NCBI GenBank assembly: GCA_017621075.1
Contig: JAGATV010000050.1
Coordinates: forward strand, 1-45,030
DNA length: 45,030 nt
Source: Lachnospiraceae bacterium
GTDB taxonomy: Bacteria; Bacillota; Clostridia; Lachnospirales; Lachnospiraceae
Reading direction: 5' to 3'
A program made the translations under genes and the position numbers. Within the stretch, counting starts at the first letter, position 1. Every line of letters begins with the position of its first letter. Under the pieces are notes generated by a model that had not been told where the DNA came from, did no database searches, and saw nothing but the letters and a program-made list of their open reading frames with translations. Below, one piece after another: positions 9,988 through 44,751 of this stretch.

Positions 9988-10443
9988 CTATGACATTTTG
10001 TTTCCACATTTGCGGCAGAATTTAACAGGGATGTCATATCCTTCGCCACATTGGGAACAGAATACTCTGGCGGGTGCTTCTGCATTTGCTTCGGCACCTG
10101 CGACAGCCTCTGTGCCCGACTGGCCTGCATCGGTCCTGCCCAGGATCTCATTGCTCTTGTCTTCTATGGAATTGAGCTCTTCTGTAAGTTCTTCGATATC
10201 CTTTTTTCTCTTTTTGATCAGCTCGAACTTGTCAACCAGCCGGCTAAAATCCTCAGCGCCGCTTTCCCACAGTTCATAAGCTTCCTCCCCCAAAAGAGCA
10301 TATGCTCTCTTGTTGTCTTTTTCCAGAGAATCGATATGGGTCAGGATCTTAGACCTCTCCAGAGATGCCGAGGTCTTGACGCCTATGGTGGTAATACCAC
10401 GATTGACTGACATTTTGAACTTTTCCAATGCATCACCAGCCAT
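9988..10443 (-). CDS. Small coiled-coil protein with C-terminal zinc ribbon
   Basis: A 151-aa protein without a signal peptide or membrane span, presumably cytosolic. Residues about 25-103 are charged heptad-like sequence likely to form a coiled coil. A linker rich in Ala, Gly and Glu leads to a C-terminal zinc ribbon with CSQC (129-132) and CRKC (143-146). It is the last gene of the six-gene zinc-ribbon operon, and its ATG overlaps the end of the preceding gene by 11 nt. Its ribbon sits at the C-terminus, the reverse of its three partners. Function unknown; an adaptor on the cytosolic face is one possibility. Confidence 0.8.
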   Translation of the reverse strand: MAGDALEKFKMSVNRGITTIGVKTSASLERSKILTHIDSLEKDNKRAYALLGEEAYELWESGAEDFSRLVDKFELIKKRKKDIEELTEELNSIEDKSNEILGRTDAGQSGTEAVAGAEANAEAPARVFCSQCGEGYDIPVKFCRKCGNKMS

Positions 10444-12631
10444 ACCGGAATGCTCCTCCCTGGGTTGATCTGCCGGTCACGGCAGCCATTATGCCTACCA
10501 CATCATCGTCTACCTTCTTGGCTTTCTTTCCGCTGTAGCAATATAATTCACCCTTGTAGCTCTTCTGGCTGTACTCGCTCAGATAATATACATTGCCGTC
10601 TACCAGCTCATATTTGGTTACATCATCTGCGATCTTTTCGGATTTTCCGTTCTTGTAGACCTTCAGGGTTCCCTCCTGCTTAGAGGTATCATAATCTGTA
10701 TAATAGTAGAACTTGTCATTATCTTTATCATACCGCAGGTTATATCTGTATACATCATAGTCTGCCTGCTTTTTGTCCACATACAGATCACCGTTTTCTT
10801 CGTCATAATCCTTGAAATAACGGATATGCTCACTTCCGGTAAAGTACACTCCGGTGCCGGTATATACATCACTGTCGTACAGTTCCGGGGCGGATACTTT
10901 TCCGTTATTGATCTTTACAACATACAGATCTCCCCTCTGTTTTTCCGAATCCACATCGCTCACAAACAGAACTCTATCTCCCTTGGCATTCAGCACAAAA
11001 TTCTGGCCTTCTTCCACATCGATGACGCTTGCCTTTGCCCCCGCTGCCACATAATGGTTTGCACTCTGTAACAATTCGGTGGTAATGGTGCTCTCCAAAT
11101 CATATATATTTTCAAATTTGGACAATTTAACCTTTTCAAAGGATTCTGTATCCAACGCAGTATATACGATCACTTCTGCATCCGATGCTGTGTTATATAA
11201 ATATCTTCCCATGAAGCCTTCTGTGATCTTTTCTTCATCCTTGCCGTCAAAATAGAACAGTTCATATTGCTCTAAGTTAAAGCTTACATCGTCCTCCAGG
11301 GCGTTACGCATTCTATCTCTGGAAAGCTTCTCCTGATACTGCTGATACTTTTCATCATATTCTTCCTTGGCCTTGTTATACTCTGCAACTGCCGCATTAT
11401 AAGCAGATTCTGAGTAATAGCTGTAGCGGGAAGGATAAGCAGGCCACTCCGGCTCCTTGGTATTCAGATCTTCCTCTGCCATGTCATCAACAATGAAATC
11501 AGAGATGGACTGGCTGCCGGAATTGTCCTTGATGTAATAAGCTGCCCCTGAGTCATAAACCTGAAGTACCGCACTGACATTGGAAGCGATCTTTTCCTTA
11601 TCTTTTCCCTCTGTCTTTTTGTAGAAGGAATCCTCTTTCATGTAGTAGATGGTTTTCAAGTCATCGGTGTTGTAACAAACCTTCGTTACATCACTATCGA
11701 TCTTTTCTTTATCTTTCCCCAGTTTCCAGACATAAAGTTCATCTTCATCATTCAGATAATAAACTTTTTTGCCGTCATCGGACACCTCAAAATTGCTTAC
11801 ATCCCCTGATATCTTGGACTTATCCGACTTCTTAAGGTTATAGGAGTATAAGTCGCCATCGTCCTTGATATAGGTAACCAGGGTTGCGGCGTCATTCACG
11901 GAATAAGCCACAATGTCAGAGTCAATCTTCTGTCCCTCTTTATCAGCCTTTGACAGCTTCTTGTAATAGAGATTGCAGCCATCATCGTCATCACTGATCT
12001 TGTCAGGGTAGAAGATCAAACTGCCGTCATCGCTCTTTGCAAAGTAATAGCGCAATTCAGATGACGCATAAGCAAGTTCGGAATTGCCGATACCATCCAC
12101 ATCTATCAACTGCTCTGTGATCTGTACCGGTTTTTTGCTGCCGGGCTCTGTATAAAATACCTCTTTGTCCTTTATGTAAAAAGTGTAATCCGCCTTTGAA
12201 GACTTATTGCCGCCCACAAAGATCAATCCTACAACCGCTACCAGTACCACTGCACATGCTGCGATGATGCCGATCAGCAAGCCCTTGGACTTCTTTTTCT
12301 CCTTCGGCTGTTCGGCTTCCTCTGCTACAGCGCCGGTAACCGCATTGGCTCCGCAATTAGGGCAAAAAGCACTCCCTGCGGGAATTGCAGTTCCGCAGTT
12401 GGGGCAAAAGGCACCTGCCGCCTCTTGTGTCTGCTCCGGCTGTACCTCCTTGGCAGCTTCTTCTGCTTTAGGAGCTTCCTCTGCTGCAGTCTGGTCTTCT
12501 GTTGCGTTCTGCTCTGATACTGCCTCCACAGTTTCAGGTGCCTCCTCTTTAGCAGCCACCTGCATACCGCAGTTGTCGCAGAACAGGGAACCGTCTTCCA
12601 GTTCTTTTCCACAACCCCTACATTTGATCAT
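10433..12631 (-). CDS. Double zinc-ribbon membrane protein with extracytoplasmic propeller-like domain
   Basis: A 732-aa protein. Two N-terminal zinc ribbons (Cys 4/7/18/21 and 75/78/90/93) are joined by an acidic Ala/Glu linker. A Lys-rich stop (EKKKSK) and one span (about 117-139) follow, then a 590-residue outside region. That region holds many short repeats of the type LYxxxL or VYYLND, evenly spaced as in DUF5050 or WD40-like beta-propeller repeats; a charged helical insert is at about 395-450. The topology is that of TcaA/YvbJ-type zinc-ribbon proteins: ribbons inside, large domain outside. The gap to the upstream vWA gene is 33 nt and it overlaps the next gene by 11 nt. Function unknown. 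Confidence 0.82.
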   Translation of the reverse strand: MIKCRGCGKELEDGSLFCDNCGMQVAAKEEAPETVEAVSEQNATEDQTAAEEAPKAEEAAKEVQPEQTQEAAGAFCPNCGTAIPAGSAFCPNCGANAVTGAVAEEAEQPKEKKKSKGLLIGIIAACAVVLVAVVGLIFVGGNKSSKADYTFYIKDKEVFYTEPGSKKPVQITEQLIDVDGIGNSELAYASSELRYYFAKSDDGSLIFYPDKISDDDDGCNLYYKKLSKADKEGQKIDSDIVAYSVNDAATLVTYIKDDGDLYSYNLKKSDKSKISGDVSNFEVSDDGKKVYYLNDEDELYVWKLGKDKEKIDSDVTKVCYNTDDLKTIYYMKEDSFYKKTEGKDKEKIASNVSAVLQVYDSGAAYYIKDNSGSQSISDFIVDDMAEEDLNTKEPEWPAYPSRYSYYSESAYNAAVAEYNKAKEEYDEKYQQYQEKLSRDRMRNALEDDVSFNLEQYELFYFDGKDEEKITEGFMGRYLYNTASDAEVIVYTALDTESFEKVKLSKFENIYDLESTITTELLQSANHYVAAGAKASVIDVEEGQNFVLNAKGDRVLFVSDVDSEKQRGDLYVVKINNGKVSAPELYDSDVYTGTGVYFTGSEHIRYFKDYDEENGDLYVDKKQADYDVYRYNLRYDKDNDKFYYYTDYDTSKQEGTLKVYKNGKSEKIADDVTKYELVDGNVYYLSEYSQKSYKGELYCYSGKKAKKVDDDVVGIMAAVTGRSTQGGAFRYGW

Positions 12632-12664
12632 CTTTCTTAACCTCCATATCTTATAGTATGTATT

Positions 12665-14797
12665 TTATTGACTTGCCAGGATATTTTTCCAGGCAGTCGA
12701 TATTACACCTTGGAAACGTGTTTCATTTTCTTCTCCATAGTGCTGGTTTATCAGGCTTCGCAGTTCATTATAGGATATATTCGGGTTGTTCCTGTATATC
12801 TCCAATGCCGTAGTATATACGATCTCATACCGATAGTTGTACAGTGCACTGAAATTCTGCCATAAAACCGGATCTGCCCGCAGCACTTCGGTCACCGTGT
12901 CACCATCCAGTGTGCCATTCTCTGTGATCACACCCAGATCGATCATCTTGGCCAGCTGTTTCTGCCCGTTCTCACTGTCTCCGAAGGAATAATCATTCTT
13001 TGCATAATAGATATTGATCACTGTCTGTACCGCCGTAAGGTCATCTCCCAGTTTGGCCAGATCATCCGAAGACAAATATTTGGAACCGGTGTAGTATGCG
13101 CCCAGATTGGATGCATCCAATCCGGAAGATGCGTATGCCGTCTGCAGCGCCTCCGCATTTAACTCCGATTCAATGCGGATCCCCAGGTTCTGTGTGGGAT
13201 CTGCATACAGTACATAGACATCTCTGTTCTTATCATTCGGCACCTGTGTCTTATAGGACAGTTCATACATTCTTCCCTGTGCCTCATAGATATCCATATA
13301 CACATCCTTTAGGTCATACACCGTCTTGTTGGCATAATAGGCACCGCCTGTGGCTTCTGCTATATTCCGAAGCTCTGCTGAATCCACATAGCTGCCGATC
13401 CCTATGATATATACCGGCACCTGGTAATACAGTGACACGTCGATCACATCCTGCGCATCATAGTCATAGCCTGCGCCGTACGGCTCATTATGTCCATCTG
13501 TAAATGCCACTACGCATCTGGCGCCCTCTGCCGATGCAGTGTATACTACCGATGAGTACAGCGACTGGTACAGGCTGGTGAGTCCGTAGCATTCCAGTCC
13601 CCACACGGTATTGATCAGTTCGTCCTTGTCCGTGGTAAATTCCTGATGTCTCTCATAAATACTGCCGATCGTAGAAAGTCCAAGCACCGTATCTGAATAG
13701 GTCCCGTCAATGAATCCTTCTATGGCGAGCTGCATATCGTAGAATTCATAACGCATACTGCCCGAGATGTCTGCCACGATATCCATGGAAAGCATACCCT
13801 CAATCTGGGTGATATCCTCAGCCAGGCACTCATTCCACTTCTCATTGTACTTCTCATAGATGATAAAATCTTCCAGCTTAAAGTCATACTTCTGATAATC
13901 ATAAGAATTGATGTAAAGCTTTACTTCGTCCTGCCCGGAAACATCTGCCTGAACATACTTTTCTATCTGCTCCCGGCTGTATGTCACGGAACTGAACTTT
14001 TCCGCCCAGTCACTCAATGCCGTATAATCATCCTGAAGCTTCACATAATCCAGGGCACTTCTGTCCGCCTCGATATCTGCGGTCAGCCCTTCTATCATAT
14101 ACTCTTCAAAAGGATGCATATGATATCCGGCAAACAGATTTTTGATGTCCTGTGCTTTCTCGATATATTCCGATGCCTTTTCCACATTTCCCGCTACGAT
14201 TTTGTCACGTATCTCCTTCAGATCCGCGGTATTGCTCTTGCAGGCCTGCTCGTCAAACTCCTGAAGGGATTCTTCCAGCGCCTTCTTGGCACTCTGATAA
14301 TCCTCATCATAATCGTCCATTACATACTTGCCATCGGTTTCAATCTCTTTTACGATATTGTCATATTGGTCCCGATAAGTTGCGACCGCTGCATTCATGC
14401 TGTCTATCTCAGCAGTGAGACTGTCCATGGAAGCAGCCGCCTCTTCATATTTCCAGAATTGGAAATGGGATGCCGCATCCTGAGAATCTTCCAACAGTGC
14501 CTCGTAATCCTTCTGATATTTGCCAAGAGAGCCAAAACCTTCCGGCATCTTCTCAAACTCGGCAATCACTCCCCGAAATTCATTGGTCTTGACTGCGCCG
14601 TAAACTGCTGCTCCTGCCGCACCCACAACCAGCAGCGAAACCAGGGTAAGGATAATGGGTCCTGCAATCGATCTCTTCTTTTTCGGTTCCACGCTTTCAC
14701 TTGCGGTTTCCGGTGGTGTATATGCAGCCATAGTACCGCACTTGGGGCAGAATTTTACTGTATCCGGTATATCGCTTCCGCAATTTCTGCAAACCAT
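12665..14797 (-). CDS. Zinc-ribbon membrane protein with extracytoplasmic von Willebrand A domain
   Basis: A 710-aa protein. The N-terminal zinc ribbon has CRNC (3-6) and CPKC (17-20). A basic stretch (KKKR) and one membrane span (about 43-70) follow, then a long helical, probably coiled-coil region to about 335. The von Willebrand A domain has a complete metal-ion-dependent adhesion site: DISGS (343-347), Thr407 in GLTSLY and Asp434 in FTDGHN. About 200 further residues with no recognised domain follow. vWA domains with intact MIDAS usually bind a protein ligand through a divalent cation. The gene lies centrally in the six-gene operon, suggesting a scaffold or receptor outside the membrane. 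The link to its neighbours is inferred from gene order only. Confidence 0.87.
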   Translation of the reverse strand: MVCRNCGSDIPDTVKFCPKCGTMAAYTPPETASESVEPKKKRSIAGPIILTLVSLLVVGAAGAAVYGAVKTNEFRGVIAEFEKMPEGFGSLGKYQKDYEALLEDSQDAASHFQFWKYEEAAASMDSLTAEIDSMNAAVATYRDQYDNIVKEIETDGKYVMDDYDEDYQSAKKALEESLQEFDEQACKSNTADLKEIRDKIVAGNVEKASEYIEKAQDIKNLFAGYHMHPFEEYMIEGLTADIEADRSALDYVKLQDDYTALSDWAEKFSSVTYSREQIEKYVQADVSGQDEVKLYINSYDYQKYDFKLEDFIIYEKYNEKWNECLAEDITQIEGMLSMDIVADISGSMRYEFYDMQLAIEGFIDGTYSDTVLGLSTIGSIYERHQEFTTDKDELINTVWGLECYGLTSLYQSLYSSVVYTASAEGARCVVAFTDGHNEPYGAGYDYDAQDVIDVSLYYQVPVYIIGIGSYVDSAELRNIAEATGGAYYANKTVYDLKDVYMDIYEAQGRMYELSYKTQVPNDKNRDVYVLYADPTQNLGIRIESELNAEALQTAYASSGLDASNLGAYYTGSKYLSSDDLAKLGDDLTAVQTVINIYYAKNDYSFGDSENGQKQLAKMIDLGVITENGTLDGDTVTEVLRADPVLWQNFSALYNYRYEIVYTTALEIYRNNPNISYNELRSLINQHYGEENETRFQGVISTAWKNILASQ

Positions 14798-14833
14798 TCC
14801 GACTTCCTCCTGTGTAACATCCTATCATGTATT

Positions 14834-15853
14834 CTAATACTTTAAATGATTTACATTCTTGATGACATCCTTCTCAATATCAAAACTACATATATAGGAA
14901 TGACAGGTTCCTTCGATCACCGGTGTGTAAAAATGACCGTCTTCTCCCTGTGTGATATAATAGGGAATTCCGTCCAATTCGCCAAACATATCTCTTATGT
15001 TCTCATATTGTCCGTTTCCAAAACCCGCCAGGGTCTTAGATCTTACGATCATCGGTTCCTTTTCTTTTGCCGCATCGGCAGACGTTACAAGATAATAATA
15101 GTTTTGTATATGAAGCAACTGAACCATTTCTCCCAGCTCAGGCGCCACCGGATACACGGCCTTTACCTTAAAATTGCTCTTGTTTACAGCATATATCGCA
15201 CTTTTTCCTACGCTCGGGAAATAAATGGTATTCTTATCCATGGTAAAGGACCGGGTGTAAGCGCCATTCAGATCCTTTATGGTCCTGGTACTTTTCAGTT
15301 TCAGGGTAAGACCGTTTTTGGCACGCTTATAGATATACATGGTCCCGGTCATGGAACTCCATACATAAAACTGTCCCGTAGCCTTATCATAAACCGTATA
15401 ATGGGGGCGTATCCCTACATTTTCAATACTTTCCACCAGTTGATAGCCCACCTCTGTCTTGGTATAGGTAACCACCCGGTTGTTGTCCGTGTCTATGACA
15501 AGATATATCGTTCCGTCACTTGCTATCGCATGGGGACGGTTCAGTCCCATTCCCACAGGATTCCATCCGCCGGGTGCATTGTTTACATCATTTGTATGCA
15601 GGATCTGATGATTATAAGCATCTGCGATAAAAAACTCACCGCCAAACTGATACACCTGTGTGGGCACAAAAAATCCTTCTTTATAGATGTTCTCGGCGTC
15701 ATATGCATATACCTCTCCGGGCTGTGACTTGGCCGGCTCCGTCTCCTCTTCCTCATCATCTGCCAGGACGATGAATCCACTCTGCAGCAAAAGTACCGCT
15801 GACAGCACCAGGCAAAGTATTTGCCTTGCAGACCACATTTTTCTCTTCCTCAT
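14834..15853 (-). CDS. Secreted NHL/propeller-like protein
   Basis: A 339-aa protein with a clear signal peptide: basic start MRKRKMW, hydrophobic core, likely cleavage after VLA (residue 31), then an acidic stretch. The mature part has repeats resembling NHL or six-bladed propeller blades, such as FFIADAYNHQIL, IYLVIDTDNNRVV and FYVWSSMTGTMYI. It starts 3 nt after the stop codon of the metallophosphoesterase gene, so translation is probably coupled. No anchor is visible; it may be released or held by operon partners. No enzymatic motif was seen. Confidence 0.8.
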   Translation of the reverse strand: MRKRKMWSARQILCLVLSAVLLLQSGFIVLADDEEEETEPAKSQPGEVYAYDAENIYKEGFFVPTQVYQFGGEFFIADAYNHQILHTNDVNNAPGGWNPVGMGLNRPHAIASDGTIYLVIDTDNNRVVTYTKTEVGYQLVESIENVGIRPHYTVYDKATGQFYVWSSMTGTMYIYKRAKNGLTLKLKSTRTIKDLNGAYTRSFTMDKNTIYFPSVGKSAIYAVNKSNFKVKAVYPVAPELGEMVQLLHIQNYYYLVTSADAAKEKEPMIVRSKTLAGFGNGQYENIRDMFGELDGIPYYITQGEDGHFYTPVIEGTCHSYICSFDIEKDVIKNVNHLKY

Positions 15854-15856
15854 TCA

Positions 15857-16963
15857 CTATTTCTCCTCTCCGTCATTGGCCTTGATCACATGTACGATCC
15901 CGATTCTTCCCTCAAAAGCCGGAGCAAAAATATGCTCTTTCAGATCATTTGCTGCAATGCCATCCCACGACGCATGTAAATGTGCCGCCAAAAGCTGTAT
16001 GACATTGGAATCTTTATCATACATACCGTCTATGAATGCCTGAGTGTTCTTATCAGGCATATAAACAGAATCTGTCTTATTCCAGTAATAGATCCTGTTG
16101 CGGGTTGCCATAGATACCTGCTCAAGTGTGGGGTCCTCTTCCGAATAAAAAGGAACATGCGTCACTACGATCACCGGTTTATCCGCTCTCAGTTTATCCT
16201 TTAAAAAGCGGAGTCTTCCGTCTGAAAGATTCTGATAGGACTTGTTTACCCCCACTATCAGAAATTCATCAAATTCAATACATGCCGAACCGTCATCGCC
16301 GTCCCAGAGCTTTGCCTGCTCCATAAAACCATCCTGGTCCGTGAACACACTGCCACCGTACCAGCCACCATAATCGTGGTCTGACCGGATGTACAGGATC
16401 TGTTCTTCCGGATATTTCAAATCATCGAATCCCGACTTCAATGCACGCATATTGGAGTGGCTGCAATAATCCACCATATCTCCGCCAAACACGACAGCAT
16501 CAAAATTGTAATAATTGAGGAATTTGACGATTTCCGGCCAAAGTTCCTCGGCATGCACCCCTTCCGGCGTCACTGAAAAAGTCTCATACCGCTCTCTGAC
16601 TTCCGGCAGATTCTCTTCCAACACATCGCCCGGCTCAGTGTCAGTAATCATATGCAGATCATTGACAAAAGCAATATCGTATCCTCTGGTCAGCCCCTCT
16701 ATTTCCACCGTAATTTCATCCACCTTAAAATCATACTCCGGCGGCTCATATTGTATTACGGCATCTCCCAAAGAAACATCCCCCGAAGAGACATCCTCCG
16801 TGGACTTTGCGCTGTCCCCGGCTGTCTGCCCTCCGGGTACGTCGGGCTGTGCTTCCTGTATTGCCCTGCTGCAGGCGATACACAGCACAACCGCAAACAC
16901 CACTAACAGTATACCTGCCGGAAAAAGAAGGACTCTCTTTCCTTTTCTTTGCTTATTCACCAA
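15857..16963 (-). CDS. Membrane-anchored extracytoplasmic metallophosphoesterase
   Basis: A 368-aa calcineurin-like phosphoesterase. The N-terminus is basic, followed by one span (about 11-31) ending near a Cys; the lipobox is poor, so a signal anchor is more likely. A Ser/Gly/Asp-rich linker leads to the catalytic domain at about residue 90. Motifs: DLH (102-104), GGDMVD (160-165), TH (268-269) and AHLH (327-330). The usual GNHD motif is replaced by SDHD (194-197), so the metal-bridging Asn is an Asp. Substrate unknown; cell-envelope phosphodiesters or nucleotides are possible. The start overlaps the preceding zinc-ribbon gene by 11 nt and the next gene begins 3 nt after the stop. Confidence 0.86.
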   Translation of the reverse strand: MVNKQRKGKRVLLFPAGILLVVFAVVLCIACSRAIQEAQPDVPGGQTAGDSAKSTEDVSSGDVSLGDAVIQYEPPEYDFKVDEITVEIEGLTRGYDIAFVNDLHMITDTEPGDVLEENLPEVRERYETFSVTPEGVHAEELWPEIVKFLNYYNFDAVVFGGDMVDYCSHSNMRALKSGFDDLKYPEEQILYIRSDHDYGGWYGGSVFTDQDGFMEQAKLWDGDDGSACIEFDEFLIVGVNKSYQNLSDGRLRFLKDKLRADKPVIVVTHVPFYSEEDPTLEQVSMATRNRIYYWNKTDSVYMPDKNTQAFIDGMYDKDSNVIQLLAAHLHASWDGIAANDLKEHIFAPAFEGRIGIVHVIKANDGEEK

Positions 16964-18482
16964 GGATCACCGGTACGTTCGTGCGGATCCACTCTCTGGT
17001 GGCTGCTGTGGTTCCGTTGTGTGTATCTACTTTGTACTTATCCTCTCCATCCAAATCATTAAAGTACCAGAAATGCCTCAGATCCACACTGCTGACTGAG
17101 TTGACCCCGATGTCATTCCCAATTGTGAAATTCTGCTCCCGCTTGATCTCATCCACAATGGCATTATAAGCATTGCGGTACTTTTCCACATCCATTCCCG
17201 CTTCACTTCCGTATGTAATGATATTCTGGATCAGAAGCAGATTGTAATCTGTCTCCTCCAAGATTGCCTCCATGCTCTGTACTGCAGCTTCATAGCTCAG
17301 AGAGCCGTCTGCCAGTCCCGTCTCACAACGCTTCGTTGTGATCCACGCAAGGGAATACACATAGCGCAGGCGCAACGGGTCCTCCAGATCTTCGTCATCA
17401 AACAGGATGGGCTTGCCGTTTTCCTTTATGGAATATGCCTGTTCTGCATAATTCCACGCTTCATCCCTGGACCAGTTCTCATACTCGGTGATGCTGTTTA
17501 TGCTGTCGATGTACATATCCCTGAAAGTCTGAATGGTCTCTTCTTTATAAGCATAAAGCTCCGTACTGTCTACCGTATAGCCTTTCTCGGTAAGGGTCTC
17601 GGTGATCGCTGTTGCATTCGTCAAAATATCACTGATCTGTTCAAAACCTGCTGCATATGCACCCTGGCTTATGATATTGTCACAATATCTGATGATAGAA
17701 TCAACATACATCCAGTAGACACTGTCAATACCTTCCTGCGCCTCTTCCTGGAGATTATTTTCTTCTGCCACGGTCATATACTGTTGGATCGCCTCCACAC
17801 TGTGGGGAATCGATCCGTCTGTATAATTGCCGGCCTCATACTCTGACTTGACCTGTTCAACCAGCTCACCTGCAGGCTCAAGGAGCGCCACATCTCCTTT
17901 TTCCTCTTTCTGTCCGCTGCCGTCTTCAGGGTCACCGTCTTCTTTTTCATTTCCGTCTTTCTCTTCGTTTTCGATCACAGTTCCAAACAATCCGGAAACT
18001 GCCTCAAGGGGATTCTCACTGCGCACACCTATGAAATAGAAGAGCATTCCCGCAACCATCACGATCAGCAAAAGAACAATGACAATGATGATCACCGGCA
18101 GTTTTGAAGACTTAGACTTCTGGTGTGTCGCCTGGGGTGCCGGCTGAGGCTTGGGTGCCGGCTGAGACTGAGGTGCCGGCTGAGACTGAGGTGCCGGCTG
18201 AGGCTTAGGTGCCGGCTGAGACTGAGGTGCCGGCTGGGGCTTAGGCGCCGCCTGCTGTGCGGGCCCCCGCTCCTGCTTCCTGCCACATTTGGTACAGAAT
18301 TTTGCCGCCGGATCGAGTACCGCCCCACATCCGGGACAATGTACCTCTTTGGGAGGGTTCTGTTCTTTCCCTTCGGATTCATTTGTATTCTTTGCTGTTA
18401 TATTGTTTTCTATCTTATTCCCGCAGCGTACACAAAACTTACTGTCATCAGGAATATTAGCACCACACTTAGAACAAACCAT
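16953..18482 (-). CDS. Double zinc-ribbon membrane protein with Pro/Gln/Ala linker (first gene of operon)
   Basis: A 509-aa protein. Two zinc ribbons (Cys 3/6/17/20 and 49/52/63/66) are followed by a repetitive linker of PAPQ/PKPQ units (about 73-119), a basic patch, a membrane span (about 128-151), an acidic low-complexity stretch (about 165-205) and a mostly helical outside region of about 300 residues with regularly spaced Tyr and Glu. A GAGGAGG site precedes the ATG. It is the first gene after the operon promoter. The outside domain is not recognised by eye. The linker is encoded by an 18-bp tandem repeat (separate entry), so its length may vary between strains. Confidence 0.83.
   Translation of the reverse strand: MVCSKCGANIPDDSKFCVRCGNKIENNITAKNTNESEGKEQNPPKEVHCPGCGAVLDPAAKFCTKCGRKQERGPAQQAAPKPQPAPQSQPAPKPQPAPQSQPAPQSQPAPKPQPAPQATHQKSKSSKLPVIIIVIVLLLIVMVAGMLFYFIGVRSENPLEAVSGLFGTVIENEEKDGNEKEDGDPEDGSGQKEEKGDVALLEPAGELVEQVKSEYEAGNYTDGSIPHSVEAIQQYMTVAEENNLQEEAQEGIDSVYWMYVDSIIRYCDNIISQGAYAAGFEQISDILTNATAITETLTEKGYTVDSTELYAYKEETIQTFRDMYIDSINSITEYENWSRDEAWNYAEQAYSIKENGKPILFDDEDLEDPLRLRYVYSLAWITTKRCETGLADGSLSYEAAVQSMEAILEETDYNLLLIQNIITYGSEAGMDVEKYRNAYNAIVDEIKREQNFTIGNDIGVNSVSSVDLRHFWYFNDLDGEDKYKVDTHNGTTAATREWIRTNVPVILGE
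18136..18252 (-). repeat. 18-bp tandem repeat (in-frame minisatellite) in the zinc-ribbon gene
   Basis: Six copies of GTGCCGGCTG recur every 18 nt (plus-strand reading), plus one degenerate seventh. Each unit encodes six residues of the Pro/Gln/Ala linker, so gain or loss of units keeps the frame. It lies wholly within a coding region and has no CRISPR spacers. Confidence 0.85.
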
Positions 18483-18503: not shown

Positions 18504-18576
18504 AATATCGTAATATTGATTATAGCACCTCCTAAAATGTCCGTCAATGTTTTACACTATCTGACATTACGATATT
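18504..18576. promoter_or_regulatory. Pair of inverted 11-bp elements bracketing the zinc-ribbon operon promoter
   Basis: AATATCGTAAT (18504-18514) and its exact reverse complement ATTACGATATT (18566-18576) lie on either side of the promoter, with 51 nt between them. The downstream copy extends to AATATCGTAATATT, itself a half-symmetric AATAT-N4-ATATT element; the upstream copy is followed by another CGTAAT in direct repeat. The arrangement suggests paired operators and possibly DNA looping. It sits in the 218-bp divergent region shared with the McrB-like gene. Confidence 0.5.
18519..18547 (-). promoter_or_regulatory. Strong sigma-A promoter of the six-gene zinc-ribbon operon
   Basis: TTGACG (18542-18547) and a perfect TATAAT (18519-18524) with 17-nt spacing on the minus strand, about 37 nt before the ATG of the first gene. 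No other comparable promoter was seen within the operon, where gaps are 36 nt or less. Confidence 0.85.
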
Positions 18577-18700: not shown

Positions 18701-20131
18701 ATGAAAAGCGTAATCGTTACAAAAGAACAGGAATTTCGTGACTGGCTGCGCAGCCAGATGACCCCTGACGGCATCCGCCGCTTTACGGACAACACCATCA
18801 TCGCCTACTGCCATGCACTGCGTACCCTATGCCCGGAAATCGCCGCACATACCAAGGAATCTGTCTACAGCAGCAATCTCTTCCTGCTTTCCAGCGCATT
18901 GGAATATGATGCCGCCTATGAGGAATTGATTGCCAGTCCTGCCTTCCTTGCAGTAAACGAAGCTTCCGGAAATAACGTCCTGCTCACCGGCATGGATCTG
19001 TACCGCTTTTTCCTGCACAACGGCAAAGGTTCCCAGGCGCCGGAGGTCTATACCCCCATTTATCGGAGCAAGCCCTTCTCACGGACGGCAGAAGAAGACA
19101 GCGAAGAAAAGAAAGAATCGGAATTCTTTTATGTGGAGATCCCCATGACTCCCATCCAAAAGATCTACTATGGAGTGCCCGGAACCGGCAAATCCTTCCG
19201 TGTCCGGAATTTCCTGAATACCCAATATCCGGACCCCCACAGGCGGGATGCCCATTGCCGCCGTGTGATCTTTCACCCCACATACACTTACGAAGATTTC
19301 GTAGGCGGTGTCAGAGCCAGACTTTCCCCGGACAAAGAACTGTATTATGTTTATGCCGCAGGCCCTTTCACCTTGCTGTTAAAGGAAGCTTTCCTGCACT
19401 CTGACGAAACCTTCTATCTGGTCATTGAAGAGATCAACCGCGGGAACGCCCCTGCTATCTTTGGCGACCTGTTTCAGCTTTTGGACAGACAGGAAAGCGG
19501 CAGATCCATGTACGCCGTCCAAAACAATGACCTGATCGCCTATTTTTCCAGGGACCCCGCCTTAAAGGGACTCTTTAGCGGCGGAAAGGTATGGCTGCCG
19601 CCCAACTTTAACATCATTGCCACCATGAACACCGCCGACGAAAATATCTTCGTGCTGGACAATGCGTTCAAGCGCCGTTTCGCCATGGAATATATCGGGA
19701 TTTCCTTTGAAGGGCTTCCTGAAAGATGGACCCGAAACTATCCGGTCTTTGCAGGGGCCACACCGCTGACTACACTTTTTGAGGGCACGGATCTGGAAGA
19801 CTATGTATCCTTGTTGGACAGGCAGGGGGTACTGTCACGAAACTGGCCTACCTTTGCACTTCTGGTAAACCGCCTCATCGACTGTGTCAACGCACAAAAA
19901 AGAGCCTCCGGCCTGACGGCGGACGCTCTGATCGCAGAGAACAAAAAGTTGGGCCCCTTTTTCCTGTCGGAATCGGAAGTGTCCGACAGGCATGCACTGA
20001 TCAATAAGGTAATCTTCTATTTAAAACAGGATGTCTTCTTTGCATCCCAATATATGACTCCCTCCTTTGAAGAAATCTGTGCCTGCTATGACAGGAAAGA
20101 GGGCGACCTGTTCAGGCTGCTGCTGCACTGA
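18701..20131 (+). CDS. McrB-like AAA+ NTPase without McrC partner
   Basis: A 476-aa protein. The AAA domain is of the McrB type: Walker A GVPGTGKS (158-165), the segment FHPTYTYEDFVGGVR, Walker B region VIEEINRGN (241-249) and the McrB signature region MNTADENIFVLD (309-320), where McrB of E. coli has MNTADRS. The first 110 residues resemble the SAM-like core-binding domain of tyrosine recombinases (EFRDWL, then NTIIAYCHALRTL); this is a tentative reading. McrB normally works with the McrC nuclease in cutting modified DNA. No McrC-like gene is adjacent: the next gene is an amidase on the other strand. The ATG has a modest AGGGA site. It may be an orphan defence ATPase or have another role. 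Confidence 0.85.
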   Translation: MKSVIVTKEQEFRDWLRSQMTPDGIRRFTDNTIIAYCHALRTLCPEIAAHTKESVYSSNLFLLSSALEYDAAYEELIASPAFLAVNEASGNNVLLTGMDLYRFFLHNGKGSQAPEVYTPIYRSKPFSRTAEEDSEEKKESEFFYVEIPMTPIQKIYYGVPGTGKSFRVRNFLNTQYPDPHRRDAHCRRVIFHPTYTYEDFVGGVRARLSPDKELYYVYAAGPFTLLLKEAFLHSDETFYLVIEEINRGNAPAIFGDLFQLLDRQESGRSMYAVQNNDLIAYFSRDPALKGLFSGGKVWLPPNFNIIATMNTADENIFVLDNAFKRRFAMEYIGISFEGLPERWTRNYPVFAGATPLTTLFEGTDLEDYVSLLDRQGVLSRNWPTFALLVNRLIDCVNAQKRASGLTADALIAENKKLGPFFLSESEVSDRHALINKVIFYLKQDVFFASQYMTPSFEEICACYDRKEGDLFRLLLH

Positions 20132-20887
20132 TCAGGATACATCTTGCAGTTCCTCCTTCAGATGTTCCCACTCTTCCGGATGTTCGGTATAATACAGCGG
20201 ACACTTTTTCCCTCCGCAGTCATAATGCCTCAGGACGTCCTCTGCATCCAGATCATACACTTCCATGAGCCATTGCAGCAAGCCGATCAGGGAGTCATAA
20301 GTTTCCTGCGTAAAGGAACCGTCTTTCGATCTGTAGCAGCATTCTATGGAAACAGAATCATAATTCCTGGTCTGGACTGCATAAGCAATCTCATCAAGGG
20401 GCACACACTGGATGATCTCCCCGTCATAGCCAATGATAAAATGGGCACTTGCACTGGTCTCATGGGTATCCTTCAGCGACTCAAAATAGCTGCGGTTCTG
20501 GGCCGCACTGGTGTTTATGTTGGCCGTATAATGTACAAAGATATTCTTTACCTTTGGCAAAGCTTCTCCCGGCCTGGAATATTCATTCACAGTGAGAAAA
20601 TCTTCCGTCCAATCCGGGTGCTTCGCATAATCCGAAGCGGACAGTCCCTGTATGGTGCCTCTGTCCGGGGCAGTATTTCCCTCTGAACCCAATTCCGTTA
20701 CCGGACGGACGCTGCCGTCCACCGAAGGCTCTTGCAGCATCCCTTTGATCAGCAGGCACAGCGCCGCCAATACGCCCGCCATGACTCCGGTAAAAATGAT
20801 CCTGCGTCTGCGTATCTTTCTTCGTCTTGCCAGTGCTCTGCGCCTTACTGCTTCCCGCCTTCTTACTGTTTCTCTTTGGTTTTCCAT
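20132..20887 (-). CDS. Membrane-anchored N-acetylmuramoyl-L-alanine amidase (Amidase_2/PGRP fold)
   Basis: Predicted to cut the bond between muramic acid and the stem peptide of peptidoglycan, outside the membrane. From the ATG at 20887 it has 251 aa: a very basic N-terminus rich in Arg, a single span (about 30-50), a linker, then the amidase domain. Zinc ligands are visible: His in VHYTAN (about 119), His in LRHYDCGG (about 221) and Cys in KKCPLYY (about 229). An in-frame ATG 33 nt upstream (20920) lacks a ribosome site; the choice of start is not certain. The stop codon directly abuts the McrB-like stop in convergent orientation, with no room for a terminator. Confidence 0.87.
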   Translation of the reverse strand: MENQRETVRRREAVRRRALARRRKIRRRRIIFTGVMAGVLAALCLLIKGMLQEPSVDGSVRPVTELGSEGNTAPDRGTIQGLSASDYAKHPDWTEDFLTVNEYSRPGEALPKVKNIFVHYTANINTSAAQNRSYFESLKDTHETSASAHFIIGYDGEIIQCVPLDEIAYAVQTRNYDSVSIECCYRSKDGSFTQETYDSLIGLLQWLMEVYDLDAEDVLRHYDCGGKKCPLYYTEHPEEWEHLKEELQDVS

Positions 20888-21012
20888 GATCCTTTTTCCT
20901 GTAGCAGCCCTTTCCAACATTTTTCAAGACTAGGATACAGGGAAAATGTGTCTGATTCCGTCACTTTTTCTTAACATTCTCTTAAGATTGCCCTACTCAC
21001 CTTTTCCGGACT

Positions 21013-43326: not shown

Positions 43327-44751
43327 TCAATAGTAGCAGACAACCGGGAATCCTGTATATACCTGTTCATAAATACCGGCAGCCATTTCCAGCGGGAGAT
43401 TGATACAGCCGTGAGAACCATTTGTTAGATAAATATCGCCGCCAAATTCTGTTCTCCAGGTGGCATCATGCATGCCATAATTGCCATGAAACGGCATCCA
43501 GTAAACCACAGGAGTCTCATAATCCCTGCCTCTGAGGATCGCATTGGTCGTCTTGTAAGTGATCCCGAACACGCCCTGGGGCGTCACACAATCACTGGTG
43601 CCATCCATATCACCGGAAACGAAATCGGTCTCCAGGACAATATTACCGTTCTTATATAAATATAAATGCTGGTTCGTGAGATCTGCTTCCACATAGGAAG
43701 AACCAATGTCGTTCGTGCCTTTTCTGGGGGCTTTGCTCAGATATAGAGGTTCCTTTTCTTCTTTTTTGCCATCCCGAATCTGTCGGATCAACGCTTCCGT
43801 CTCACCCTCACAATCTGTTTTCCAGCCAAAAGCACCGCTGGGCAGGGTCAGTTCTGTCCCGGCCGTAGTGCGGAATTTTCTGTTCTTTCCGTAGGTATCG
43901 TACTTTTCGGCATTTTCCTTTACAAATGCCGCAACCGCTTCCTCATCCAAAGACGGACCATTGTTGTCTAACGTGATCCAGTCCTTTAACTGCACTGCGT
44001 CCACTACTACTTTATTTCCGTTCCAGTCATAAGTGATCTCTGTGCCTATCCATTGGTTCAATGTGGCCAGTTCTTCCTTAAGCTGCTCATCCTCCGCAGC
44101 AACCTTCACCTGTTGGTAACAATCCTGTTCCTCCAGATCCACCTCACTGCTATTACTGTAAATTGCACTCTCTATGACCGTTGTCACTGCTTTCATATCC
44201 AACCGGGTCCCAATAACTTCCGGCACGATCTCATATCCTTTGGTTTCCTCCCGATAACCGGTGATATAGGCATCCTGAGGTTCCACCATGTTTTTATCCT
44301 GAAAAGCAGCTATACCGCTTAGTGCATCCTTAAGTTTGTCCTGATCGAAACTCACACTCTGCACCATACTGTAACTCACCCTGTCTTTGATAAGGTAAGA
44401 CTTGGCCCACAACCATGAATTCTGACGATCCAGCAACTGCTCCACATCTCTCAGAGCACCCAGACGGACCAATCCCACATCAGAAGCCTGAACACTTCCC
44501 AATATTTCTTTTTCTCCGGTATTGCTTCGCCCACGGATTTCCAGGGAATAATCCGTGATCTCTCCCTCCAACAGGGCCACAGCCTCCGAAGCCTCCATCC
44601 CACTGCAATCTATATCATTGATCCATGTATTGGGCAAAAAATGTTTCTGATAGTAAAAAGCCACACTGATATATACTGCAATTGCCGCAGCTAACAATAT
44701 CCCTCCCGCTATCAAGAGTACATTTCTCACTTTATGTTTTCTTACGTCCAT
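43327..44751 (-). CDS. L,D-transpeptidase (YkuD) with PG_binding_4-type repeats
   Basis: A 474-aa cell-wall enzyme anchored by one N-terminal span (about 10-32), facing outward. The middle (about 40-320) has two PG_binding_4-like lobes. The catalytic YkuD domain (about 350-474) has His422 and His428 in FHGNYGMHD and the Cys nucleophile in SHGC (446-449). It would make 3-3 crosslinks in peptidoglycan or attach proteins. The ATG follows GGAGAG. A promoter with an extended -10 and a tRNA terminator lie just upstream, so this is the start of the long co-directional run. Confidence 0.94.
   Translation of the reverse strand: MDVRKHKVRNVLLIAGGILLAAAIAVYISVAFYYQKHFLPNTWINDIDCSGMEASEAVALLEGEITDYSLEIRGRSNTGEKEILGSVQASDVGLVRLGALRDVEQLLDRQNSWLWAKSYLIKDRVSYSMVQSVSFDQDKLKDALSGIAAFQDKNMVEPQDAYITGYREETKGYEIVPEVIGTRLDMKAVTTVIESAIYSNSSEVDLEEQDCYQQVKVAAEDEQLKEELATLNQWIGTEITYDWNGNKVVVDAVQLKDWITLDNNGPSLDEEAVAAFVKENAEKYDTYGKNRKFRTTAGTELTLPSGAFGWKTDCEGETEALIRQIRDGKKEEKEPLYLSKAPRKGTNDIGSSYVEADLTNQHLYLYKNGNIVLETDFVSGDMDGTSDCVTPQGVFGITYKTTNAILRGRDYETPVVYWMPFHGNYGMHDATWRTEFGGDIYLTNGSHGCINLPLEMAAGIYEQVYTGFPVVCYY

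What the first reader, a model, noticed from the sequence alone, without database searches (positions are those of the whole stretch)
9988..18482. Six-gene zinc-ribbon / vWA / metallophosphoesterase / propeller operon, a candidate undescribed envelope system
Six minus-strand genes are packed with overlaps of 11 nt or gaps of at most 36 nt under one strong promoter. Four carry CxxC zinc ribbons (three N-terminal before a single membrane span, one at the C-terminus of a cytosolic coiled coil). The outside parts are a vWA domain with complete MIDAS, propeller-like domains and a metallophosphoesterase. The layout suggests an envelope complex assembled on the inside through the zinc ribbons and acting outside on a phosphorylated ligand. 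I know of no named system with this combination; TcaA/YvbJ are the nearest by topology only.
Basis: partly seen in the sequence, partly recalled or inferred. Interest (0 to 1): 0.78.

Follow-up and report, generated by a model that had tools for sequence, protein, structure and literature searches.

The report
Zinc-ribbon receptor, phosphoesterase, propeller module
Six neighbouring genes in a gut bacterium hold a small conserved set (a membrane receptor with a zinc-binding tail, an outward-facing phosphate-cutting enzyme and a propeller protein) that recurs in related bacteria, in some beside cell-wall or stress-signalling genes, which suggests an undescribed sensor of the cell surface.

Summary
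In detail: six minus-strand genes (9988-18482), 11-nt overlaps or gaps of at most 36 nt, a strong promoter-like site, six CX2CX10CX2C zinc ribbons in four proteins. The six are not a fixed system: I found the full set only here; the nearest relative has another order and no g6. Inside it is a conserved core: g1 (ribbon-TM-helical ectodomain), g2 (outward metallophosphoesterase), g3 (NHL-type propeller). Close g2 occurs in 8 of 397 Lachnospiraceae genomes, with g1 or g3 in the same locus in all 8; these g2 (with a ninth) form one tree group (92/94). In single other loci the core meets envelope-stress and Ser/Thr-signalling genes: PspA after g3, an SPFH protein upstream, g1's ectodomain fused to a kinase beside PP2C, FHA/PP2C genes after a module-type g3; other loci show none. 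vWA relatives often sit beside peptidoglycan amidases. Best reading: an envelope-surveillance module with accessory ribbon proteins (g4-g6). All 18 aligned g2 carry Asp for the Asn of GNHD, so 'acts on a phosphorylated ligand' is unproven. My searches of the held papers found no description; TcaA, Llmg_0524/0526 and ribbon-YARHG proteins are the nearest kinds.

The parts
16953..18482 (-). g1: two CX2CX10CX2C zinc ribbons, Pro/Gln linker, one TM (about 122-156), helical ectodomain; putative receptor/scaffold
   Evidence: (low confidence)
15857..16963 (-). g2: N-terminally anchored, outward-facing metallophosphoesterase with RSDHDYG in place of GNHD
14834..15853 (-). g3: signal-peptide-like N-terminus plus NHL-type beta-propeller, module-type subfamily
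12665..14797 (-). g4: zinc ribbon, TM, coiled stretch, vWA domain with complete MIDAS (accessory)
10433..12631 (-). g5: two zinc ribbons, TM, propeller-like ectodomain (accessory; in the same locus as g1/g2 in 4 of 9 module loci)
9988..10443 (-). g6: cytosolic coiled coil with C-terminal zinc ribbon (accessory)
18519..18547 (-). promoter-like site of g1 (TTGACG-17-TATAAT, TG before the second hexamer)
18504..18576 (.). 11-bp perfect inverted repeat AATATCGTAAT (18504-18514 / 18566-18576) around the promoter, candidate operator; not found upstream of g1 in 7 other loci

Best explanation
g1-g2-g3 is the extracytoplasmic part of an envelope-surveillance (cell-wall stress) module; g4-g6 are add-on ribbon proteins. 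Proposed working: g1 is a single-pass receptor whose helical ectodomain sits in the wall space with the anchored metallohydrolase g2 and the exported propeller g3. g2 and g3 bind or process an envelope polymer or lipid-linked intermediate, and g1's state is passed inside through its zinc-ribbon tail to a Ser/Thr kinase, PP2C/FHA or PspA-type response, which adjusts wall hydrolases. Shown: gene order, domains, MIDAS, ligand conservation, conserved linkage, and a kinase fusion and neighbours in other species. Inferred: topology from sequence, the ligand, the direction of signalling, and that the window's copy uses the same outputs.
For: Close g2 (E 1e-70 or better, a cut set after seeing the loci) in 8 of 397 family genomes, each with g1 or g3 in the same locus; the 9 linked g2, L071 included, form one group, 92/94, 0 of 500 shuffles as low. 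A g1-ectodomain profile built from these loci finds only 8 of 319 genomes, 7 with adjacent g2, so g1 hardly occurs apart from g2. One branch (98/98) sets 9 g3 apart: the 7 linked, one with g1 in its locus and one cut by a contig end. PspA directly after g1-g2-g3 in L143, SPFH/Band_7 upstream in L140, Pkinase with PP2C next to it in L142; that kinase's ectodomain matches a g1 profile made without it (E 2.6e-17 among 693 proteins). FHA, FHA, PP2C, FHA and PP2C genes after module-type g3 in L119. In G080 an MBL-fold hydrolase follows g1 directly, where g2 would be. vWA relatives: Amidase_3 beside them in 5 and GH3 nearby in 2 of 13 loci. Precedents: Llmg_0524 ribbon and wall integrity (PMC4628341, abstract and passages), TcaA and wall teichoic acid (PMC10328498, passages).
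Against: Among the 29 window proteins scanned with Pfam no PspA, kinase, PP2C or FHA protein appeared. Each signalling neighbour comes from one other locus and was picked out after looking; L071, L118 and L141 show none that I recognised, and L139 sits among aspS/hisS-like genes (by eye) with a Peptidase_S11 gene three genes upstream. Four of the five loci's amidases are homologues of one another, so that linkage may be one event. g2's Asp for Asn may lower or change catalysis. No PDB relative by sequence beyond E 0.0036 for g2 and, for g1, only ribbon or linker/TM matches or weak chance-level ones.
Confidence: 0.48

Rival explanations
1. A wall-polymer processing complex without signalling: g2 cuts phosphodiesters of a teichoic-acid-like or capsular polymer (or a lipid-linked precursor), g3 binds or cleaves the glycan, and the ribbon proteins only hold the enzymes together at the membrane.
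For: Outward MPE with its metal-ligand positions kept; exported propeller with invariant His, Arg and Asp, the two His lying in 'PH' motifs like those of the Pizza designs matched (a Cu-bound Pizza also tops the fold search); MPE apparently replaced by an MBL hydrolase in G080; amidases and GH3 beside vWA relatives.
Against: Kinase fusion of the g1 ectodomain and PspA/FHA/PP2C neighbours point to signalling. I noticed no recurring glycosyltransferase or polymer-assembly gene beside the module, but the neighbours were not all scanned.
Confidence: 0.22
2. An accessory of type VII secretion: ribbon-vWA, ribbon-propeller and kinase/PP2C/FHA proteins regulate or dock a T7SS-like exporter.
For: g5 and g4 relatives stand together with a ribbon-kinase, PP2C, FHA-vWA and WXG100 proteins in L065; a vWA relative lies before FtsK/SpoIIIE+FHA and WXG100 genes in L064. 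T7SSc-j often carry kinases, phosphatases and FHA proteins, and T7SSg a DUF5050 propeller (PMC11217815, passages).
Against: I recognised no WXG100 or FtsK/SpoIIIE-type gene in the ORF lists of the 11 loci that hold module-type genes (mostly by eye), nor by Pfam among 29 window proteins. g5 matched no DUF5050 model at E 0.1. Whether the own genome has a T7SS was not tested.
Confidence: 0.12
3. Only g1-g2-g3 is a unit; g4, g5 and g6 are unrelated ribbon genes gathered in one operon because Lachnospiraceae carry many ribbon-TM proteins.
For: g4/g5 not found or unlinked in most module genomes; order swapped in L071; g6 seen in one other locus only.
Against: g5 lies in the same locus in 4 of the 5 genomes that hold both a full-length g5 and the module (about 2e-8 by chance if independent); g4 and g6 relatives share an operon in G076.
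Confidence: 0.18

Closest known systems
TcaA (Staphylococcus aureus)
   Same: Intracellular zinc finger, one TM, large ectodomain (predicted); acts on the cell wall (PMC10328498, passages).
   Different: Only a weak match of g1 in the ribbon (NF053815 E 0.022, 13.6 of 550 bits); no Pfam hit with a TcaA name at E 0.1; I saw no report of an MPE or propeller partner.
Llmg_0524-0525-0526 operon (Lactococcus lactis)
   Same: Two CX2CX10CX2C zinc membrane proteins in one operon; the motif binds zinc, and its loss from Llmg_0524 alters growth and lysozyme resistance (PMC4628341, abstract and passages).
   Different: Three genes; the abstract names no other recognisable motif; no hydrolase, vWA or propeller mentioned in what I read.
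Zinc-ribbon-TM-YARHG proteins
   Same: 73 instances with paired ribbons, predicted inside, and a wall-binding candidate outside; YARHG also fused to Ser/Thr kinases (PMC3355149, parts 1-2 of 4).
   Different: No YARHG match for g1, g4 or g5 at E 0.1; a resemblance of g1's C-terminus is my reading only.
Psp / pspA-ydjGHI (Bacillus subtilis)
   Same: Ribbon membrane protein YdjG, band-7 YdjI, PspA (PMC9239133, passages); PspA and SPFH genes flank the module in L143 and L140.
   Different: No PspA found beside the window operon; different ectodomains.
Rv0805 / SpdA-type phosphodiesterases
   Same: Weak sequence kinship to g2 (E 0.0036; NF050112 E 1.3e-4).
   Different: g2 is membrane-anchored by sequence, has Asp for the Asn of GNHD and is far under the NCBIfam cut-off (21.7 of 400 bits).
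T7SSc-j loci
   Same: Kinase, PPM, FHA and vWA components near some g4/g5 relatives.
   Different: No WXG100/EssC recognised beside the module.

Membership tests
TcaA family | N-terminal zinc ribbon, TM, ectodomain | tested here: met
   g1, g4, g5 by motif and hydropathy
TcaA family | TcaA equivalog score or TcaA-type ectodomain domains | tested here: not met
   13.6 bits against a cut-off of 550; no such Pfam hit at E 0.1
Metallophosphoesterase superfamily (PF00149) | Pfam score over cut-off | tested here: met
   31.4 against 21.5 bits
Metallophosphoesterase superfamily (PF00149) | Canonical GNH[DE] motif (recalled) | tested here: not met
   [ASG]DHD in 18 of 18 aligned; an own-genome paralogue has GNHD
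vWA with MIDAS | DxSxS, T, D metal site | tested here: met
   D343, S345, S347, T407, D434 invariant in 11 aligned; Pfam VWA_2 itself just under cut-off
NHL-type beta-propeller | NHL repeat / propeller fold | tested here: met
   PF01436 25.8 against 20 bits, no single repeat significant; low-confidence model (pLDDT 54.8) matches NHL and Pizza propellers
Psp response | PspA homologue in the operon | tested here: not met
   None among 29 window proteins scanned; present after the module in L143
YARHG proteins (PF13308) | YARHG domain | tested here: not met
   No match in g1, g4, g5 at E 0.1
T7SS | WXG100 and EssC/FtsK-type ATPase | tested here: not met
   None among 29 window proteins scanned; own genome not searched for it
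PADLOC defence systems | Model match of operon proteins | tested here: inconclusive
   One 17-bit match in g1's linker/TM (PD-T4-6); none in g2-g6 at E 0.001
Envelope signalling module | Physical complex and signal transfer | not testable with these tools
   Needs experiment

The most novel reading that the evidence does not exclude
A new class of trans-envelope receptor in which a zinc-ribbon tail is an exchangeable socket: the same ectodomain, with its near-obligate outward metallohydrolase and propeller, is wired through the ribbon to different outputs (kinase/PP2C/FHA in some species, PspA or SPFH proteins in others), and the hydrolase with Asp in the GNHD motif acts as a ligand sensor rather than a housekeeping enzyme.
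Probability: 0.27. Interest if true: 0.82.

Novelty: new variant of a known kind. Interest (0 to 1): 0.56.

Why it matters
Ribbon-TM-ectodomain proteins are common in Firmicutes, touch wall integrity or antibiotic response in the cases I read about (TcaA, Llmg_0524), and I know of no established signalling route for them. A conserved module that ties one to a metallohydrolase, a propeller and, elsewhere, to a kinase fusion and PspA makes that route testable: it names the partners, the ligand-side enzyme and candidate outputs. If right, it would add a receptor type to the envelope-stress repertoire of gut bacteria.

Tried and rejected
Fixed six-gene operon: rejected. Raw counts of vWA hits (40 of 150; 23 of 61) or g5 hits (75 of 150): not used, since most are short ribbon-only matches; I kept matches over the ectodomains. 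Solved-structure search for g1: ribbon, linker/TM or chance-level matches only. Structure of the g1 ectodomain: all-helical, mean pLDDT 62.4, no match at E 0.001, not used as evidence of family. The g3 model is reliable only in its first half. Order- and class-wide g2 profile searches at E 1e-50: 7 of 344 and 3 of 291 genomes, own included; the hits not seen before (G349, G120, G655; G1011) score 174-179 bits, like the own-genome paralogue, against 440-463 for the members of the profile, and were not followed up; the rows listed were all of this family. Operator repeat: not found upstream of g1 in 7 other loci. Plasmid search with g2: no match. Defence reading: no support. The second g1-like copy of G080 (L195) has a lipoprotein-like N-terminus and no g2 or g3 in its 19 kb. 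g6 was searched for only in fetched loci, not genome-wide. Neighbours of vWA loci L063, L067, L068 and L070 and of the later one in G295 (L196) were not scanned with Pfam; neighbours of the non-module g3 loci were read by eye at most. Of the nine distant g2 loci one (L149) ends at g2's stop, so its downstream side is unknown. Several module genomes are incomplete (68-83% for G390, G246, G181, G336, G295), so absences there are weak.

Full report
OBSERVATION. Ribbons are all of the CX2CX10CX2C type: two each in g1 and g5, one each in g4 and g6. Pfam supports the ribbons, MPE, NHL and, just under its cut-off, vWA. In the own genome (2.36 Mb, 87% complete) Zn_Ribbon_1 is found at 11 places, 6 of them in four genes of this operon (g6's just under the cut-off) and 5 elsewhere. 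Counting proteins, and the two places on C8 as one, 4 of 8 lie in one six-gene run, about 2e-6 by chance with an assumed 2200 genes. The promoter-like site before g1 is the strongest of the region and framed by a perfect 11-bp inverted repeat. rpe follows g6 after 40 nt, and the clear terminator lies behind rpe.

WHERE IT LIVES. The window is a whole contig (C9) of its assembly. The one named relative, L071 (CANPWJ010000090.1), is an uncultured Acetatifactor (Lachnospiraceae). The same contig appears as G181:C90 (8627 bases), which the genome search calls the same genus as the window. There the order is [contig edge]-g2 (56%)-g3 (63%)-g5 (37%)-g4 (60%), and no g6 follows.

THE CORE. g2 is the cleanest marker. 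At E 1e-25 it occurs in 17 of 397 family genomes, own included. I fetched the loci of all 16 others. Eight of the 17 are close: own, and seven at 37-49% identity with E 1.4e-71 or better. I set that cut after seeing the loci, but the tree draws the same line. All eight have g1 or g3 in the locus; the nine distant ones (best E 6e-59) have neither, one of them cut at g2 by the contig end. With L071 this makes nine module loci: g1-g2-g3 in that order in the window, L139, L140 and L143; g1-g2 with g3 facing them in L106; g1-g2 then contig end (185 nt) in L118; g1-g2 without g3 in L141; g3-g2-PP2C-[kinase fused to g1 ectodomain] in L142; g2-g3 in L071. g1-g2 junctions are -34 to 73 nt in the seven loci where they touch. 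The nine linked g2 form one side of one branch (92/94; 0 of 500 label shuffles as low). A profile of the g1 ectodomain without ribbons, built from these loci and L108, hits 8 of 319 genomes: seven have the adjacent g2, and the eighth, G080, has two copies and no g2 beside either. Since the profile holds these very loci, what it adds is that no further genome of the 319 carries g1. In G080 the gene directly after the first g1 is a membrane-anchored MBL-fold hydrolase (L108_12, Lactamase_B 5.7e-15), perhaps standing in for g2. g3 is wider (13 of 150 genomes). One branch (98/98) splits 19 g3 into ten, none linked to g2, and nine: the seven linked ones, G080's and one of G006's (whose contig begins inside g3); the label 'linked' alone needs two changes.

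ACCESSORY GENES. Full-length g5 relatives stand in the same locus as g1/g2 in the window, L071, L106 and L118, in G013 beside a vWA relative, and apart from the module in G295. Of nine other genomes with module genes (G080 included) tested for g5 at E 1e-15, three have it linked, G295 unlinked, G390 a partial match, four none. For g4 in the same nine: linked in G181, full but elsewhere in G295, partial vWA matches in G390 and G037, only the ribbons of g1 in G116, none in four. Several of these genomes are incomplete. g6 was found in one fetched locus only (G076, E 1.4e-20), in one run of genes with a ribbon-vWA, an Amidase_3, a GH3 and two other ribbon proteins.

CONTEXT IN RELATIVES. L143: PspA_IM30 (1.4e-36) directly after g3. 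L140: SPFH/Band_7+SHOCT (1.2e-36) and two ribbon proteins upstream (ribbons by pattern). L142: Pkinase (1.2e-29) in the g1 fusion and PP2C next to it (all). Left out of the profile, the L142 ectodomain still matches g1 at E 2.6e-17 among 693 proteins, and at 1.3e-12 with a profile of the six closest g1, so the fusion is real but divergent. L119 (G006): after module-type g3 come FHA, a ribbon-DUF4870 protein (both matches just under cut-off), FHA, PP2C, FHA, PP2C and the start of an exported protein with a MIDAS-like motif. L106: an ABC-2 transporter between g1 and g5. Against this, I recognised no such gene in L071, L118 or L141, and L139 lies beside aspS/hisS-like genes (by eye) with a Peptidase_S11 gene three genes upstream. 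For the vWA family, 13 loci besides the window were recognised: Amidase_3 beside it in 5, GH3 within three genes in 2 (one locus has both), T7SS genes in 2; four loci were not scanned, and the amidases of four loci are homologues of one another.

ACTIVE SITES. In 18 aligned g2 (L071 a fragment) D102, H104, D162, D195, H196, H269, H328 and H330 are invariant or at least 90% conserved, but the Asn of GNHD is Asp in all 18, whereas a paralogue elsewhere in the own genome keeps GNHD. From general knowledge (recalled), this Asn touches metal and phosphate, so activity may be changed. Several distant g2 have lipobox-like or, in one, twin-arginine-like N-termini, which fits an outside location. In g3, H108, D113, R149, H151, R201 and D260 are invariant in 18 aligned. 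Sequence and model searches put it among NHL propellers and the Pizza designs (best E 3.7e-4 and 5.9e-7); the model is poor in its second half. g4's MIDAS is complete in 11 of 11.

HOW IT MOST LIKELY WORKS. See best explanation. The strongest clue is the fusion of the g1 ectodomain to a kinase in a genome that keeps g2 and g3: the part outside the membrane has been wired to a known kind of signalling output. The PspA, SPFH, PP2C and FHA neighbours agree. None of this is shown for the window's own species.

COMPARISON. Papers: PMC3355149 (parts 1-2 of 4 read), PMC4628341 (abstract and passages), PMC10328498, PMC9239133 and PMC11217815 (passages). They describe ribbon-TM proteins, some linked to wall integrity or kinases, or related signalling and secretion loci, but in what I read there was no module with an MPE and a propeller. 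Searches for such a description: (listings only except for the papers named); the library holds open-licence papers only.

VERDICT. I rate it a new variant of a known kind (ribbon-TM envelope proteins), with a fair chance that the module is a new receptor type.

Noticed in passing
18701-20131: Divergent McrB-like AAA protein (AAA_5 1.9e-10; PADLOC REase_II 6.7e-42); I recognised no McrC-like partner next to it.
   Followed up: partly
20132-20920: Amidase_2 (N-acetylmuramoyl-L-alanine amidase), same strand as the operon, one gene beyond the divergent AAA gene.
   Followed up: no
18504-18576: Perfect 11-bp inverted repeat framing the g1 promoter; one single-mismatch copy lies inside g4 at 14349.
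   Followed up: partly
L106 8487-10280; L197 6286-7797; L199 4196-5767: Membrane proteins that begin with an 'FDPMTG'-like motif instead of a zinc ribbon: two stand in loci with g5-type propellers, one (L199_4) is itself propeller-like, and two of the three loci hold ABC-2 transporter genes; perhaps an alternative N-terminal tag.
   Followed up: no
L065 6677-17580: Locus with ribbon-kinase, PP2C, FHA-vWA, ribbon-vWA, a g5 relative and WXG100 proteins: a T7SS-like signalling island.
   Followed up: partly
L119 1-6136: Module-type g3 followed by FHA, ribbon-DUF4870-like, FHA, PP2C, FHA, PP2C and the start of an exported protein with a DVSGS motif; the contig begins inside g3.
   Followed up: partly
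L201 7160-8113: Own-genome paralogue of g2 with canonical GNHD and no g1/g3 in the 15 kb fetched.
   Followed up: partly
43327-44751: YkuD L,D-transpeptidase with PG_binding_4 at the other end of the contig.
   Followed up: no
18129-18263: g1's Pro/Gln-rich linker between ribbons and TM is a near-repeat (PAPQSQPAPKPQ), likely variable in length.
   Followed up: no
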